Origin: Kribbella amoyensis
GTDB lineage: Bacteria > Actinomycetota > Actinomycetes > Propionibacteriales > Kribbellaceae
NCBI RefSeq assembly: GCF_007828865.1
Contig: NZ_VIVK01000004.1
Coordinates: 1 to 64,000, forward strand
Direction: 5' to 3'
DNA: 64,000 nt
Shown here: one piece after another, positions 58,542 to 63,700 of the stretch
Numbering within the stretch: position 1 is the first letter of the stretch
How the letters are laid out: each line of letters opens with the position of its first letter
Notes under the pieces: generated by a model
What the model was told of the DNA's origin: nothing
The model's database searches: none
What the model saw: the letters and a program-made list of their open reading frames with translations, nothing else
Made by a program: the position numbers and the translations under genes

Positions 58542-58982
58542 TCAGCGCCCATCACGGGAAGAGTCCAACCACGGCGGCCCTTCCTCGAGCGCCCGCTCGA
58601 CGCTGTCGAGACCCCGGGTCAGGCCGCGAATGCGCGCACTGTCCTCGCCGGCGCGATCAGCGATCTCCCAAACCTGCCGCCGCACGACCGCCACCATCGC
58701 CATCCGCTGCTCGACAGTTCCGGAATCGAAGTCCGCCACGTCCATCAGCCGAGCCGCCTCCTTCATCTCCGGACTCCACCCGGCACTGACCGACAACACC
58801 GACTCCACCTGTCCCGCCAGCATCTCGATCTGCCCCACCGCCCGCTCACGTCCGGGCGGGTCGCCAATCCCCTCAGCCAACAACCCCAACTGCCGCCGCG
58901 CCTCCTCGACCCCACCACCTTCAGCCCGTATCACCAGCTCGCGCAGAGCCCGGTACACAGCCATGAACTCATCGAACTCCAT
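58542..58982 (-). CDS. Fourth A-family member (orphan), helical
   Basis: 146 aa from ATG at 58982 with GGAAGGGCGAT upstream. It is the last gene of the leftward A/B island. The C-terminal half (RRQVWEIADRAGEDSARIRGLTRGLDSVERAL, about 99-130) matches the A proteins of the three cassettes, but the N-terminal half differs (MEFDEFMAVYRALREL) and no B gene follows it. Mostly helical, no signal peptide. It lies 27 bases after B1, so A1, B1 and this gene likely form one transcript. Function unknown. Confidence 0.75.
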   Translation of the reverse strand: MEFDEFMAVYRALRELVIRAEGGGVEEARRQLGLLAEGIGDPPGRERAVGQIEMLAGQVESVLSVSAGWSPEMKEAARLMDVADFDSGTVEQRMAMVAVVRRQVWEIADRAGEDSARIRGLTRGLDSVERALEEGPPWLDSSRDGR

Positions 58983-59009
58983 ATCGCCCTTCCTCCAAGA
59001 AGACCCTGA

Positions 59010-60032
59010 TCAGTCCAGTTCGCGCACGCCCGTCGAGCGATGGTGCTTGCCGCCGGCACCCCGTTCACCCTGACCGAGCAACGGCGCGGACTTGGTCGCA
59101 CCGGTCGCCGGTGCGAGGCCGGTCAAGAAGCGCATCTCAGACGCGGCGGACGTGCCGGCTTGGGCGGATGTTGTAGCTGCGGCCTCGGGCTTTTCGGTTC
59201 GTGCCGTTCGTACTGCGAGCTGGTTCGGTGACTCGGCCGGGAAGGGGCGGTTCTGGCCGGGGGCGTAGTGCTGGCGGATCTCGTCGATCTTCGCGTTGAG
59301 GTGCTGGCGGATCTCGTTGCCGAGGGCTTCCCCGGCCGAGGCTGGGCGACCGGCGATAGTTTGCCAGAGGTCGTGGCGCATCGCATGGATCAGGGTTGCT
59401 CTGACCTGCTCACGTTCTGCAGGGCGAAAGGGAACCACGTCGCCAAGGCGGTTGCGCAGTACGGCGTCGGCCAGTTGGTCGAAGTGCATGACGGCCGGTC
59501 CCTCGGTGATGACGTCGAAGAGGGCTCCTCTTGTCTTCGACGGCCCGGTTGCCTGAGTGATGAGGCTCTCGGCGGCTGCATAGGCTCCCGGGTATTTCGG
59601 CTGGGGCAAGCTGAGGTTCCGGTACCCGGTCCTGGCCGCGAAGGCTCGGAAGTCCTGAAGGGCCCGCGCTTCGGCGAGGCCTTCCATCAGGTTCTGTGAG
59701 TGGGTCGTCCGGACGGCGTTGAGCTCGTCAGGAGCGTCGATCCACATGCCAGCGTGTGTTGCTTCATGCAGGACCGTGGCCAATGCTTCAGCCTGACCCG
59801 CCGGATCAATTGGTCCGGCCGAACCTTTCAGTTGCTGCAGGACTACGTGCTTGGAGACCCGGATGTCACCGGACTTCGCCTGAAATCCACCCCAGAGCTC
59901 GCTGTCGGTCGCGTAGAGATCGCCGTTCCACCGGTCCACCGCCGAGGGGCGAAGGGAACGGGCCGCGCGGTACAGACGGGCGAACTCCAGGTAGGCGGCC
60001 GAGTCGCGAGGGATCAGCTGGTCGGCCGCCAT
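59010..60032 (-). CDS. B-family HExxH protein, copy 1 (B1)
   Basis: 340 aa. Gluzincin-type site: LHEATHAG (HExxH with His89, Glu90, His93) followed 24 residues later by GLAEA, whose Glu is the probable third ligand. N-terminal conserved DRWNGDLYAT (33-42), middle MHFDQLADAVLRNRLGDVVP, and the tail MRFLTGLAPA...LGQGERGAG...HR...RELD. No signal peptide. The C-terminal ~90 residues are Ala/Pro/Gln-rich and poorly conserved among copies except for the tail. Start is 3 bases after the A1 stop. Probable metallopeptidase of unknown target. Confidence 0.75.
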   Translation of the reverse strand: MAADQLIPRDSAAYLEFARLYRAARSLRPSAVDRWNGDLYATDSELWGGFQAKSGDIRVSKHVVLQQLKGSAGPIDPAGQAEALATVLHEATHAGMWIDAPDELNAVRTTHSQNLMEGLAEARALQDFRAFAARTGYRNLSLPQPKYPGAYAAAESLITQATGPSKTRGALFDVITEGPAVMHFDQLADAVLRNRLGDVVPFRPAEREQVRATLIHAMRHDLWQTIAGRPASAGEALGNEIRQHLNAKIDEIRQHYAPGQNRPFPAESPNQLAVRTARTEKPEAAATTSAQAGTSAASEMRFLTGLAPATGATKSAPLLGQGERGAGGKHHRSTGVRELD

Positions 60033-60035
60033 CGA

Positions 60036-60467
60036 TCAGTCGGTCCGAGTCGTTCGTTCGTCCAGTGGCCAGCTGGGGTCACGCAGTTCGTTCTCAAGAT
60101 GTTCGAGAACTCGGGTCATGGCGCGGATGTGCGGTGCCTCGTCCTGCGGCGCGCGGTCGGCGATCTCCCAGATCCGGCACCGCGCACTTTCGAGGGCCGC
60201 GATCTTCTCCCCGGTGGTGCCGTCGACGTAGGCGCTGGCATGAATCTGTCCGGCTTCGTCGTAGAGCGAACTCCATTGCCGAGGTGGGGGCGGGGGTTCG
60301 GCGAGCGACTCGATCAGCTCAGAGGCCCACTCGCGATCCGCTGGCGGATCCTCTTCGGAGAGCAGCCCACGTAAGCGATTCTGTTCACCCGCGACGTCGA
60401 AGTCGGGTTCCGTTCTCCGCCGATGGTCCGCATCGGAGAACGCCGAGTTGAACTTGGCGATGTCCAC
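60036..60467 (-). CDS. A-family small protein, copy 1 (A1)
   Basis: 143 aa from GTG at 60467, with AGGAGGTCATAC upstream (the earlier open frame mirrors other genes). Starts VDIAKFNSAFSDADHRRRTEPDFD and ends with the A-family C-terminus IWEIADRAPQDEAPHIRAMTRVLEHLENEL. Predicted mostly helical; no signal peptide or catalytic motif. Placed directly before the B1 metalloprotease-like gene with a 3-base gap, as in a toxin/antitoxin or chaperone/effector pair. Which protein controls which is not readable from the sequence. Confidence 0.72.
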   Translation of the reverse strand: MDIAKFNSAFSDADHRRRTEPDFDVAGEQNRLRGLLSEEDPPADREWASELIESLAEPPPPPRQWSSLYDEAGQIHASAYVDGTTGEKIAALESARCRIWEIADRAPQDEAPHIRAMTRVLEHLENELRDPSWPLDERTTRTD

Positions 60468-60484
60468 GTATGACCTCCTGTGGT

Positions 60485-60537
60485 GACTAGCCGTAACGAT
60501 ATCGACGCTGCCGCATCCACGTCGGGACTTATCCACA
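60485..60537 (-). promoter_or_regulatory. Cassette-1 promoter with TGTGGATAA element
   Basis: On the minus strand: TGTGGATAA (60529-60537), 3 bases, CCGACG (-35, 60520-60525), 18 bases, TATCGT (-10, 60496-60501). Its start codon A1 is 29 bases further. The same three-part order and spacing recurs before A2 and A3. Confidence 0.65.
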
Positions 60538-60714
60538 GGCCCGGTTGGCGGAATCCGCGGGCGGTCAGTCCAGTTCGCGTTCTGTGGTGGGGCCGCGGTG
60601 GTTGCTGCCGGCGCCTTTTTGGCCCTGGCCGAGCGACGGCGCCTTTCGGGTTGCGCCGGCGGCGGGGGCGAGGCCGGTGAGGAAGCGCATCTCCGGCGCG
60701 GTGGATGTTCCGGC
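60520..60714. repeat. Direct repeat, copy 1 (195 bases)
   Basis: This stretch, covering the promoter upstream part and the end of B2, matches 62106-62300 with only a few mismatches at an offset of 1586 bases, one cassette length. It marks a recent tandem duplication or gene conversion of the cassettes. Confidence 0.85.
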
Positions 60715-61611
60715 ACGTGCCGGTGCCGCCGCCTCAGCGTCCGGTTTGGTTTTCGGTGCTTCGCTCTGTGCGGCTGGTTGGGCTGCCTGTACTGCGAGCT
60801 GGTTCGGCGATTCGGCCGGGAAGGGCTGGGTCTGGCCGGGGGAGTAGTGCTGGCGGATCTCGTCGATCTTCGCATTGAGGTGCTGGCGGATCTCGTTGCC
60901 GAGGGATTCCCCGGCCGAGGCTGGTCGGTGCTGGATCGTCGGCCAGTACACGTGGGTCATGGTGCTGATCAGAGCCGCGCGGACCGCTTGCTGATCCGCG
61001 GCTCGGTCAGGTACGACGTCGCGGAGGCGGTTTTGTACGGCGGCGTTCGCGAACTGGTCGAAGTGCATGACTCCCGGGCCGCGAATGGCTTCGTCGAGGA
61101 GGGTCCTGCGGGTCATCGCCGGACCGGTCACCTGGCTGAGGAGATCTGACGTCGCCGCGTACGCGCCGGGGTACGTCGGAATCGGGGTTGGCAGATCTGG
61201 ATAGCCGGCTCGTTCGGCGAAGGCTTCGAAGTTCTCCATCGCGTGGACCTCGGCGACGCCTTCCATCAACCCCACCGATTGGCTGGACCGTACCGCGTTG
61301 GGCTCGCCCGGCGCGTCGGTCGCCAGTCCGGCATGGGTGCTTTCGTGGAGGACCGTGGCTATCGCCTCGGACCGCGCGCTGGGGGTAGTCCTAGGCGGCG
61401 CTCCGGTCAGGTGGCGCAGTACTCGCTCGTCCGACAGCCGCATGTCCCCCGACTTCGGTTTGAAGCCACCCATCAGCTCGTCGTCGGTGGCGTAGAGGTT
61501 CCCGTTCCAGCGGTCCACCGTCGTACCGCTCATCCGCTGGGCCAGGTAGTACAGCCGCGCGAACTCCTGATAGGTCGGCGAGTCGCGTGGTACGGGTCGG
61601 TCGCCCGGCAT
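60565..61611 (-). CDS. B-family HExxH protein, copy 2 (B2)
   Basis: 348 aa. HExxH at LHESTHAG (His89, Glu90, His93) with GVAEV as the candidate third-ligand Glu region (about 118-122). Same DRWNGNLYAT and MHFDQFANAAVQNRLRDVVP blocks as B1 and B3. The C-terminal half is nearly the same as in B3 (PSLGQGQKGAGSNHRG). 3-base gap after A2. No signal peptide. Same proposed function as B1. Confidence 0.75.
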   Translation of the reverse strand: MPGDRPVPRDSPTYQEFARLYYLAQRMSGTTVDRWNGNLYATDDELMGGFKPKSGDMRLSDERVLRHLTGAPPRTTPSARSEAIATVLHESTHAGLATDAPGEPNAVRSSQSVGLMEGVAEVHAMENFEAFAERAGYPDLPTPIPTYPGAYAATSDLLSQVTGPAMTRRTLLDEAIRGPGVMHFDQFANAAVQNRLRDVVPDRAADQQAVRAALISTMTHVYWPTIQHRPASAGESLGNEIRQHLNAKIDEIRQHYSPGQTQPFPAESPNQLAVQAAQPAAQSEAPKTKPDAEAAAPARAGTSTAPEMRFLTGLAPAAGATRKAPSLGQGQKGAGSNHRGPTTERELD

Positions 61612-61614
61612 CGG

Positions 61615-62049
61615 TCAGGTCGACGGAGTCGGTGGAGTGCCGTGCGGGAAGGTGGGGTCGCGGAGCTCGTTCTCGAGGTGTTCGAGGACGCGGGTCATGC
61701 CGCGGATCGACGGTGCTTCCTCTTCGGATGCTCGGTCGGCGAGCTGCCAGATCTGGCGCCGCGCCTGGACGAGTGCCTCGATCTGTTCCTCGACCGTGCC
61801 TTCGATGGGGTAGGCGGCCGCGTGGATTCGGCCGGCCTCTTCGTACAGCGGGCTCCGTTCGGGCGGCGCCTGGAGCGGCTCGGCCAGCTTCTCGATCATT
61901 CGGTAAGCCCAGGCACGGTCTTCGTCGTCGGGCTCGCCGGTCAGGAGGTCGCGGAGCTGGGTCTGGGCCGCCTCGGTGTCGAAGTCCTGTTCGGTTCGCT
62001 GACGGTGCCGGGCGTCGGAGAACGCCGAGCTGAAGCGGGCGATATCCAT
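61615..62049 (-). CDS. A-family small protein, copy 2 (A2)
   Basis: 144 aa from ATG at 62049 with GAGGAGGCTCGA upstream. Starts MDIARFSSAFSDARHRQRTEQDFD; C-terminal IWQLADRASEEEAPSIRGMTRVLEHLENEL. Similar to A1 and A3 across the whole length. Helical, no signal peptide. Directly precedes B2. Confidence 0.75.
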   Translation of the reverse strand: MDIARFSSAFSDARHRQRTEQDFDTEAAQTQLRDLLTGEPDDEDRAWAYRMIEKLAEPLQAPPERSPLYEEAGRIHAAAYPIEGTVEEQIEALVQARRQIWQLADRASEEEAPSIRGMTRVLEHLENELRDPTFPHGTPPTPST

Positions 62050-62069
62050 TCGAGCCTCCTCGACTGATG

Positions 62070-62123
62070 TGACTGACGGTCACGATAGCGATTGGGGCGG
62101 TGGGTCGTCGGGACTTATCCACA
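62070..62123 (-). promoter_or_regulatory. Cassette-2 promoter with TGTGGATAA element
   Basis: TGTGGATAA (62115-62123), 3 bases, CCGACG (62106-62111), 18 bases, TATCGT (62082-62087), A2 start 33 bases on. The spacing between all three parts equals that of cassettes 1 and 3. Confidence 0.65.
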
Positions 62124-62300
62124 GGCCCGGTTGGCGGAATCCGCGGGCGGTCAGTCCCGTTCGCGTTCGGTGGTCGGGCCGCGGTGGTTGCTGCCGGCGC
62201 CTTTCTGGCCCTGGCCGAGCGACGGTGCCTTTCGGGTCGCGCCGGCGGCGGGGGAGAGACCGGTGAGGAAGCGCATCTCCGGCGCGGTGGATGTTCCGGC
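62106..62300. repeat. Direct repeat, copy 2 (195 bases)
   Basis: Partner of 60520-60714. It covers the promoter of A2 and the 3' end of B3, confirming that the unit duplicated is an A-B cassette of 1586 bases. Confidence 0.85.
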
Positions 62301-63188
62301 GTTCGCCGCCGCCTCCGGTATGGCTTTCGGTGCTTCGTTCTGTGCGGGTGGTTGGGCTGCCTGTACTGCGAACTGGTTCGGGGACTCGGCCGGGAAGGGC
62401 TGGGTTTGGCCGGGGGAGTAGTGGTGGCGGATCTGGTCGACCTTGGCGTCGAGGTGCTGGCGGACTTCGCCTGCGAGGGAGTGGCCGGCGTCGGCTGGGC
62501 GGTGATGAATGGTCGGCCAGTAGGCGTGGGTCATCGTGGAGATGAGTGCAGCGCGGACGGCTTGTTGGTCCTCGGGGCGGGCGGGGACGATGTCGTGGAG
62601 GCGGTTCTTGACGACGGCGTCGGCGAACTGGTCGAAGTGCATGGCACCGGGACCACGGACGGCCTCGGCAAGGAGGGCCTTTGAGGTCTTGCGCGGCCCA
62701 GAGACCTGGTCGAGGAGGTCGTCTGTAGCTGTGAAGGCGCCTGGGTACTGCGGTTCGGTCAGGACCAGGCCTGGGTAGCCGGCGCCCTCGGTGAAGACGT
62801 CGAAGTCGGCGAAGGTGCGTACCTCGGCGACACCTTCCATCAGACCGAGCGAGTGTGGCGACCGAACCGCGTTCGGCTCGTTCGGTGCATCGGTCGGCAT
62901 GCCCCCGTGGGTCGCTTCATGAAGCACGGTGGCCAGTGCCTGTGCCTGCCCACGCCGCTCCGTCAGGGAGACAGCGCCGGTGAGATGGCGCAGGACGCGC
63001 TCGGTGGAGAGGCTGATGGCGCCCGACGCGGGATCGAAGCCGCCGAGCGTGTCCTCGGGAGTGGCGTACAGATCGCCGTTCCAGCGGTCGATCCCGGTAG
63101 GACGGACACGTTGTGCTGCTCGATACAGACGGACGAACTCTTGGTAAAGCGTCGACTCACGCGGTACCAGGTAGGTCCCGCCAGTCAT
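62151..63188 (-). CDS. B-family HExxH protein, copy 3 (B3)
   Basis: 345 aa. HExxH at LHEATHGG (His90, Glu91, His94) and GVAEV with the candidate third Glu (about 119-123). DRWNGDLYAT near 34-43, MHFDQFADAVVKNRLHDIVP near 190, and the tail MRFLTGLSPA...LGQGQKGAG. Start 16 bases after the A3 stop, a looser gap than in the other two cassettes. No signal peptide. Probable peptidase of unknown target. Confidence 0.75.
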   Translation of the reverse strand: MTGGTYLVPRESTLYQEFVRLYRAAQRVRPTGIDRWNGDLYATPEDTLGGFDPASGAISLSTERVLRHLTGAVSLTERRGQAQALATVLHEATHGGMPTDAPNEPNAVRSPHSLGLMEGVAEVRTFADFDVFTEGAGYPGLVLTEPQYPGAFTATDDLLDQVSGPRKTSKALLAEAVRGPGAMHFDQFADAVVKNRLHDIVPARPEDQQAVRAALISTMTHAYWPTIHHRPADAGHSLAGEVRQHLDAKVDQIRHHYSPGQTQPFPAESPNQFAVQAAQPPAQNEAPKAIPEAAANAGTSTAPEMRFLTGLSPAAGATRKAPSLGQGQKGAGSNHRGPTTERERD

Positions 63189-63204
63189 TCGTCAGCCGAA
63201 TCCA

Positions 63205-63624
63205 TCAGTGTTGCTCGCTCGGCCAGTTCGGATTACGCAGGGCCCTCTCGATGTGCTCGAGCGACCTGGTCATGGCGCGGATGTCGGGCCCTTCGTCGTC
63301 CGAGGCCCGGTCGGCGATGGCCCAGATGCGGCGGCGTGCTTCCTCGAGTGCGGCGATCTGCTCGTCCACGGATCCCTCGATGGGGTACGCCGCGGCGCTG
63401 ACCCGGCCCGCCTCTTCGTAGAGGGCGCTCCGTTCGGGCGCGATCGGCAGCGGTTCGGCCAAGCGCTCGATCATGCGCAGGGCCCAGGAACGTTCCTCGG
63501 CATCGGTCTCGTCGGCGATCAGCTCACGCAGTTCCGCCTGAACGGTGGTGACGTCGACCCCAGGGTCCCTGCGTTGGCGGAGACGGGCATCTGAGTACAG
63601 CGAGTTGAACTGGACGATGTCCAT
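63205..63624 (-). CDS. A-family small protein, copy 3 (A3)
   Basis: 139 aa from ATG at 63624 with GGAGGCCGGC upstream; the open frame extends further but mirrors nothing useful. Starts MDIVQFNSLYSDARLRQRRDPGVD; C-terminal IWAIADRASDDEGPDIRAMTRSLEHIERAL. First gene of the island, next to the ffh promoter. Helical, no signal peptide. Confidence 0.75.
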   Translation of the reverse strand: MDIVQFNSLYSDARLRQRRDPGVDVTTVQAELRELIADETDAEERSWALRMIERLAEPLPIAPERSALYEEAGRVSAAAYPIEGSVDEQIAALEEARRRIWAIADRASDDEGPDIRAMTRSLEHIERALRNPNWPSEQH

Positions 63625-63644
63625 GCCGGCCTCCGGGGTTGCTG

Positions 63645-63700
63645 GGTAACTAACCGTCACGATAGCGATCGGGGCTGCGGGGTGTCGGTGGTTATCCACA
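63645..63700 (-). promoter_or_regulatory. Cassette-3 promoter with TGTGGATAA element
   Basis: TGTGGATAA (63692-63700), 3 bases, CCGACA (63683-63688), 18 bases, TATCGT (63659-63664), A3 start 35 bases on. Sequence outside the elements is different from cassettes 1 and 2, so the conserved parts are probably functional. Confidence 0.65.

What the first reader, a model, noticed from the sequence alone, without database searches (positions are those of the whole stretch)
58542..63700. Triplicated two-gene A/B system: small helical protein plus HExxH gluzincin
Three tandem cassettes, each an A gene (139-144 aa) followed after 3-16 bases by a B gene (340-348 aa) with HExxH and a downstream Glu, plus an orphan A-like gene. 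All are leftward and lack secretion signals. A/B proximity and co-duplication suggest an interacting pair, for example an intracellular toxin with its antidote or a regulated protease with its partner. I do not recognise either family; the whole array may be an undescribed system. Seen: tandem layout, HExxH, conserved tails. Inferred: pairing and function.
Basis: partly seen in the sequence, partly recalled or inferred. Interest (0 to 1): 0.93.

Follow-up and report, generated by a model that had tools for sequence, protein, structure and literature searches.

The report
Kribbella-only protease–partner gene pairs
This soil bacterium carries three copies of a two-gene unit (a small helical protein and a zinc-protease-like protein) that belong to previously unnamed families found only in the genus Kribbella, and in some species the protease part has lost its active site yet is still preserved, so it probably works as a regulated protein pair rather than as a plain toxin and antidote.

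Summary
In detail: three A–B cassettes plus one orphan A at 58542-63624, all leftward, gaps of 3-16 nt. B is a cytosolic gluzincin: HExxH-x23-E-G-x-A-E, a confident AlphaFold core, and best PDB resemblance to M1 aminopeptidase catalytic domains. A is a six-helix acidic protein with no known fold. Neither matches Pfam, NCBIfam, PADLOC, PHROGs or PDB sequences. Both families were found only in Kribbella (37-38 of 38 genomes; 0 of 256 other Propionibacteriales).
The array sits at one fixed site between ffh and an arginase-like gene. It varies in copy number, and 8 of 9 array-less genomes show a clean empty site. Here every intact B has its A immediately upstream, and A and B paralogues diverge in step. 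Each paired A promoter carries a DnaA-box-like sequence 36 nt before the -10 hexamer.
Against a simple toxin/antidote: at other loci 17 of 38 active B genes lack a neighbouring A; A-like proteins also stand alone; the array is vertically inherited; and a whole clade of B has lost its zinc-site residues yet stays under purifying selection. Best reading: a genus-specific regulated protease/pseudoprotease–partner module, mechanism unproven.

The parts
63659..63700 (-). promoter of the A3-B3 cassette: TGTGGATAAC box, N26, TATCGT
   Evidence: fixed 36-nt spacing conserved in 36 of 41 boxes across the genus; genome-wide the bipartite pattern occurs 9 times, 3 being these cassettes
63205..63624 (-). 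A3, 139 aa acidic helical protein
   Evidence: (model of A1)
62151..63188 (-). B3, 345 aa gluzincin-like protein
62907..62921 (-). HExxH of B3 (HEATH)
62082..62123 (-). promoter of the A1-B2 cassette: TGTGGATAAG box, N26, TATCGT
61615..62049 (-). A1, 144 aa acidic helical protein (the modelled A)
60565..61611 (-). B2, 348 aa gluzincin-like protein (the modelled B)
61333..61347 (-). HExxH of B2 (HESTH)
61249..61269 (-). LMEGVAE of B2: third-ligand Glu (E117) and the EGxAE motif
60496..60537 (-). promoter of the A2-B1 cassette: TGTGGATAAG box, N26, TATCGT
60036..60467 (-). A2, 143 aa, GTG start
59010..60032 (-). B1, 340 aa gluzincin-like protein
59754..59768 (-). HExxH of B1 (HEATH)
58542..58982 (-). 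orphan A of the second subtype; no promoter box, partner B absent

Best explanation
Each cassette encodes a cytosolic two-protein module. The acidic six-helix protein A is made first and binds the gluzincin B translated right behind it. B has an M1-like zinc peptidase core followed by a disordered basic linker and a conserved C-terminal motif. A acts as B's dedicated regulatory subunit (folding partner, inhibitor or substrate adaptor). In HExxH-containing copies B cleaves an intracellular peptide or protein when the promoter carrying the DnaA-box-like element fires. In copies that lost the zinc site the A-B complex still does a binding or regulatory job. Shown: gene pairing, co-divergence, zinc-site motif, predicted B fold, genus restriction, fixed locus, conserved promoter, selection on dead copies. 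Inferred: physical A-B binding, zinc binding, peptidase activity, substrate, and the identity of the promoter regulator.
For: Strict A-then-B order with 3-nt gaps or 8-nt overlaps in most of 36 pairs; 40 of 40 intact ffh-type B genes have A; within-genome A and B divergence r = 0.83, n = 15. H-E-H-E zinc-site residues kept in 45 of 54 full-length B. B model has pLDDT above 90 for 249 of 348 residues, best aligned to M1 peptidases with Z up to 9.6, rmsd 4.2 A over 185 residues. A pI about 4.65 against B tails of 9.5-10.2. Dead B clade monophyletic (support 1.0) with B dN/dS 0.20-0.43. Promoter box with fixed spacing in 36 of 41.
Against: No complex prediction or interaction test was possible. 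Seventeen active B genes elsewhere lack an adjacent A and A-like proteins occur without B, so the partnership may be confined to some subfamilies. Co-divergence in a tandem array also arises by co-duplication without binding. The Foldseek E-value for B is weak (0.14).
Confidence: 0.5

Rival explanations
1. Toxin-antitoxin: B is an intracellular proteolytic toxin that damages the host cell and A is its antidote.
For: Small acidic gene first, close coupling, orphan A genes in many arrays (11 of 64 A genes without adjacent B), no intact B without A at ffh-type loci, copy-number variation and clean empty sites.
Against: Active B without adjacent A at other loci (17 of 38). Dead B kept under purifying selection together with A. 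No plasmid, phage or viral-contig copies. Vertical inheritance at one site. No PADLOC match.
Confidence: 0.2
2. Signalling protease of the ImmA/IrrE logic: B cleaves its partner A (or a repressor bound by A) on a signal, switching gene expression.
For: Protease and small helical partner co-transcribed; conserved promoter element suggests regulated expression; works-like precedent IrrE-DdrO (abstract of PMC7907104).
Against: A has no recognisable HTH or Pfam DNA-binding domain and is strongly acidic; B does not match the ImmA/IrrE Pfam or NCBIfam models; dead B copies keep A.
Confidence: 0.12
3. Lineage-specific expanded families of independent function: A and B are merely co-transcribed and each works alone.
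For: Standalone A at the pmm locus and standalone active B at the ino1-like and ABC-F loci.
Against: Complete pairing at ffh-type loci, conserved order and coupling, parallel divergence of paralogues.
Confidence: 0.13
4. Secreted or polymorphic toxin with immunity protein.
For: HExxH peptidase domains are common toxin tips (general knowledge); tandem cassettes and orphan partner genes resemble immunity arrays.
Against: No hydrophobic signal and no trafficking, RHS, WXG or LXG domain in the array proteins; partner precedes rather than follows the peptidase; neighbours are ffh and an arginase-like gene.
Confidence: 0.03

Closest known systems
M1 aminopeptidases (gluzincins: tricorn factor F3, IRAP, ERAP1/2, APN)
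   Same: Predicted fold of B residues about 2-240 aligns best to their catalytic domain (Z 7-9.6); HExxH plus Glu of an EG motif.
   Different: About 10% identity; HExxH-x23-E instead of the x18 spacing of M1; no GxMEN motif seen in the alignments; no flanking M1 domains; 340-348 aa instead of 600-900 aa; disordered tail; partner A.
ImmA/IrrE (COG2856) protease with XRE-type repressor (ImmR, DdrO)
   Same: Small intracellular HExxH protein encoded next to a small partner.
   Different: No Pfam/NCBIfam match for B; A lacks a recognisable HTH and is acidic; chromosomal at a fixed site, genus-restricted.
Type II toxin-antitoxin modules, including ZnMP/HTH-Xre pairs (PMC10538038)
   Same: Two-gene operon, small acidic first gene, orphan first genes.
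   Different: Not mobile, fixed site, dead effector copies retained, effectors without partner at other loci, toxicity untested.

Membership tests
Gluzincin-type zinc peptidase (clan MA(E)) | HExxH motif | tested here: met
   All three window B copies and 45 of 54 full-length B; lost in one clade and at one second locus
Gluzincin-type zinc peptidase (clan MA(E)) | Downstream Glu third ligand in an EGxx-type helix | tested here: met
   MEG[VL]AE in the window copies, EG[LVFI][AT]E or EAFAE/ESLTE in other active copies; in the model it lies in the helix after the HExxH helix
Gluzincin-type zinc peptidase (clan MA(E)) | Zincin fold | tested here: inconclusive
   VIA-align Z 9.6 to M1 catalytic domains, but Foldseek E 0.14
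Gluzincin-type zinc peptidase (clan MA(E)) | Zinc binding and peptidase activity | not testable with these tools
   needs biochemistry
Peptidase family M1 | HExxH-x18-E spacing and GxMEN motif | tested here: not met
   Spacing is x23 in B1/B2/B3; no GxMEN upstream of HExxH in the alignments; no Pfam M1 hit
ImmA/IrrE (COG2856) | Match to the family profile and an HTH partner | tested here: not met
   No Pfam or NCBIfam match for B, none for an HTH in A
Type II toxin-antitoxin | Two-gene operon with effector always accompanied by partner | tested here: not met
   Met at ffh-type loci (40 of 40) but 17 of 38 active B elsewhere have no adjacent A
Type II toxin-antitoxin | Effector toxic alone, neutralised by partner | not testable with these tools
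   needs expression assay
Type II toxin-antitoxin | Horizontal mobility | tested here: not met
   Fixed ffh/arginase site in nearly all carriers; none in plasmid, phage or IMG/VR collections
Known anti-phage defence systems | PADLOC model match | tested here: not met
   No significant PADLOC hit

The most novel reading that the evidence does not exclude
A genus-specific protease/pseudoprotease regulatory network whose ffh-locus modules are switched by DnaA (or another factor reading a DnaA-box sequence at a fixed distance from the -10), tying expression of the A-B modules to the replication cycle, with repeated conversion of B from enzyme to pseudoenzyme.
Probability: 0.12. Interest if true: 0.85.

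Novelty: new variant of a known kind. Interest (0 to 1): 0.6.

Why it matters
It adds two undescribed, genus-restricted protein families that form a conserved two-gene module. The genus also provides a natural experiment: active, inactive, partnered, partner-less, half-partnered and fused B copies side by side. That makes it a tractable system for asking how intracellular proteases acquire partners and how they turn into pseudoenzymes, and possibly for DnaA-linked transcription in Actinobacteria.

Tried and rejected
Family searches (Pfam, NCBIfam, PADLOC, PHROGs; single proteins and alignments) gave nothing above cut-offs that fits the family. PDB sequence profiles gave only chance hits. A's fold search gave only common helical-bundle matches, top Z 8.1 to a designed repeat. 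B matches outside Kribbella at E about 3e-4 in four class-level genomes covered only the helical C-terminal part and were discounted; a phylum-wide sample found none. tblastn of plasmids and phages and a scan of viral contigs were empty. A secreted or polymorphic toxin was rejected on anatomy. The idea that B always requires A was tested and rejected for the family as a whole. A functional link between the core standalone A and its neighbouring Zn_peptidase was considered; a terminator-like hairpin between them (read by eye) argues against an operon. A cluster of DnaA-like boxes at C1:1.576 Mb was tested as oriC and was not; dnaA lies at C1:1.731 Mb.

Full report
What is there. The window end carries, leftward, A3-B3, A1-B2, A2-B1 and an orphan A. 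B2 and B3 are 61% and 56% identical to B1 and 70% identical to each other. The three paired A proteins are about 58-59% identical to A1 and the orphan A 30-33% identical to them. B2 and B3 share a much more similar tail and following intergenic region than the rest, which points to recent local gene conversion or partial duplication. In the B tree the three window copies group together with one copy from another strain, so the triplication is a recent tandem expansion.

Where it comes from. The assembly is an 8.1-Mb genome whose family, as held, contains one genus. Related loci found in genome contigs are Kribbella, plus one record labelled Streptomyces. B relatives occur in 37 of 38 genomes of this genus and in none of 256 other genomes of the order. 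A relatives occur in 38 of 38 and none of 256. A class sample gave only four weak partial matches and a phylum sample none. Sensitivity of the first-look filter limits this statement.

Locus. In nearly all carriers the array lies between ffh and an arginase-like gene, with one to four cassettes plus fragments. Nine genomes without a full array were examined: eight have ffh directly beside the arginase-like gene, and one keeps an A and a truncated B. The module is therefore dispensable, inherited at this site and gained or lost in place. A few cassettes lie elsewhere (L045, L046, L073; L070 is on a short contig without the flanking genes), and diverged A/B relatives sit at other fixed loci: beside an ABC-F-like ATPase, beside an inositol-phosphate-synthase-like gene, and between a TatD-like and an RpfB-like gene (these neighbour names are by eye).

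Pairing. Counting all B genes in the fetched loci, 33 of 33 intact active and 7 of 7 inactive B at ffh-type loci have A immediately upstream; the only other 'active' hit without A there is a 58-residue fragment. At other loci 21 active B have A and 17 do not. A without adjacent B occurs in 11 of 64 cases in one survey. An A-like gene without B lies at a conserved locus next to a phosphomannomutase-like gene in the five loci read, with matching hits in many genomes. Spacing between A and B at ffh-type loci is 3 nt in most pairs and an 8-nt overlap in eight. Within single genomes the divergence of A paralogues tracks that of their B paralogues (r = 0.83, 15 pairs). This is what co-duplication gives and is compatible with, but not proof of, binding.

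B as a gluzincin. The AlphaFold model of B2 (17-sequence alignment) has pLDDT above 90 for 249 of 348 residues and a disordered tail from about residue 290. Its order of elements (helix, three short strands, HExxH helix, glutamate helix, helical C-terminal part) and the VIA-align comparison (Z 9.6 to tricorn factor F3, 9.6 to IRAP, rmsd about 4.2 A over 185 residues) point to the M1-like gluzincin core. Foldseek alone is weak (E 0.14), so the fold claim rests on motif plus the second aligner. The tail ends in a conserved motif (RFL.G.APA..A....P.LG.G.R) that is recognisable in part even in distant relatives.

A. The A1 model has six helices (pLDDT 89) and no convincing fold match. A is acidic (pI about 4.65) while the B tails are basic. 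At the ABC-F locus a 69-residue version containing only the second half of A precedes a catalytically dead B, suggesting that the C-terminal three helices are a unit.

Loss of the active site. Of 54 full-length B, nine lack the H-E-H-E set. Seven form one clade with support 1.0 whose closest relative is active. Within this clade B dN/dS is 0.20-0.43 and A dN/dS 0.16-0.47, so constraint persists after catalysis was lost. A second, independent loss occurred at the ABC-F locus, where some genomes also carry proteins with two inactive B modules fused. These facts are hard to fit to a pure proteolytic toxin.

Promoter. Each of the three paired A genes is preceded by TGTGGATAA(C/G) exactly 36 nt before a TATCGT hexamer. 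Across the genus 36 of 41 such boxes keep this spacing to a TANNNT hexamer. In the window's genome TGTGGAYAAS occurs 90 times against 13 for the reversed control. The bipartite pattern occurs nine times, three of them here, and only these three have TATCGT. The box equals the DnaA-box consensus TT(A/G)TCCACA on the other strand (consensus from general knowledge), and the region upstream of dnaA contains TGTGGACAAC and related boxes. No -35 hexamer is obvious, so an activator bound at about -48 to -39 is the simplest reading. Binding of DnaA is inferred only.

Conclusion. The finding is real and the families are undescribed in every library searched. The toxin-antidote idea is possible at this locus but is disfavoured for the family as a whole. 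The best-supported reading is a genus-specific cytosolic gluzincin with a dedicated helical partner, under a conserved regulated promoter, that has repeatedly evolved into a pseudoprotease-partner module. The physical complex, zinc binding, substrate and regulator remain to be tested.

Noticed in passing
L184:4520-4981, L185:4752-5201, L186:4526-4975, L187:4185-4640, L188:4806-5234: A conserved standalone A-like gene (142-153 aa) next to a phosphomannomutase-like gene; in four of five loci a secreted-looking PF04228 Zn_peptidase-like gene lies just upstream with a terminator-like hairpin between them.
   Followed up: partly
L164:5286-5495, L167:5270-5479, L068:5835-6044, L069:7741-7950: A 69-aa half-A gene sits between an active and a catalytically dead B at the ABC-F locus.
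   Followed up: partly
L166:311-2122, L182:251-2086, L182:2119-3621: Proteins of 500-611 aa made of two fused, inactive B modules.
   Followed up: partly
L136:6209-6740 (G000:C1 about 1,576,200-1,576,740): Cluster of DnaA-box-like TGTGGA sequences away from oriC, in part just upstream of a gene that looks like an Lrp/AsnC regulator.
   Followed up: no
L004:18696-19599 (G000:C4:77095-77998, beyond the window): A small gene followed by one with a caspase-like N-terminus (VALVVANDRYAD...), possibly an effector-associated component plus caspase pair; judged by eye only.
   Followed up: no
L139:1230-1859: An active B without A is preceded by an overlapping gene that looks weakly LigT/2H-phosphoesterase-like (Pfam E 0.14).
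   Followed up: no
L106 (record NZ_JAAGLV010000014.1): Record titled Streptomyces sp. SID13031 carries the Kribbella-type array; its contig has the same length as contig C41 of a genome placed in the window's genus, so it is probably mislabelled.
   Followed up: no
L050:7088-10296: Array decaying by frameshifts: several broken B genes with A genes still present.
   Followed up: partly
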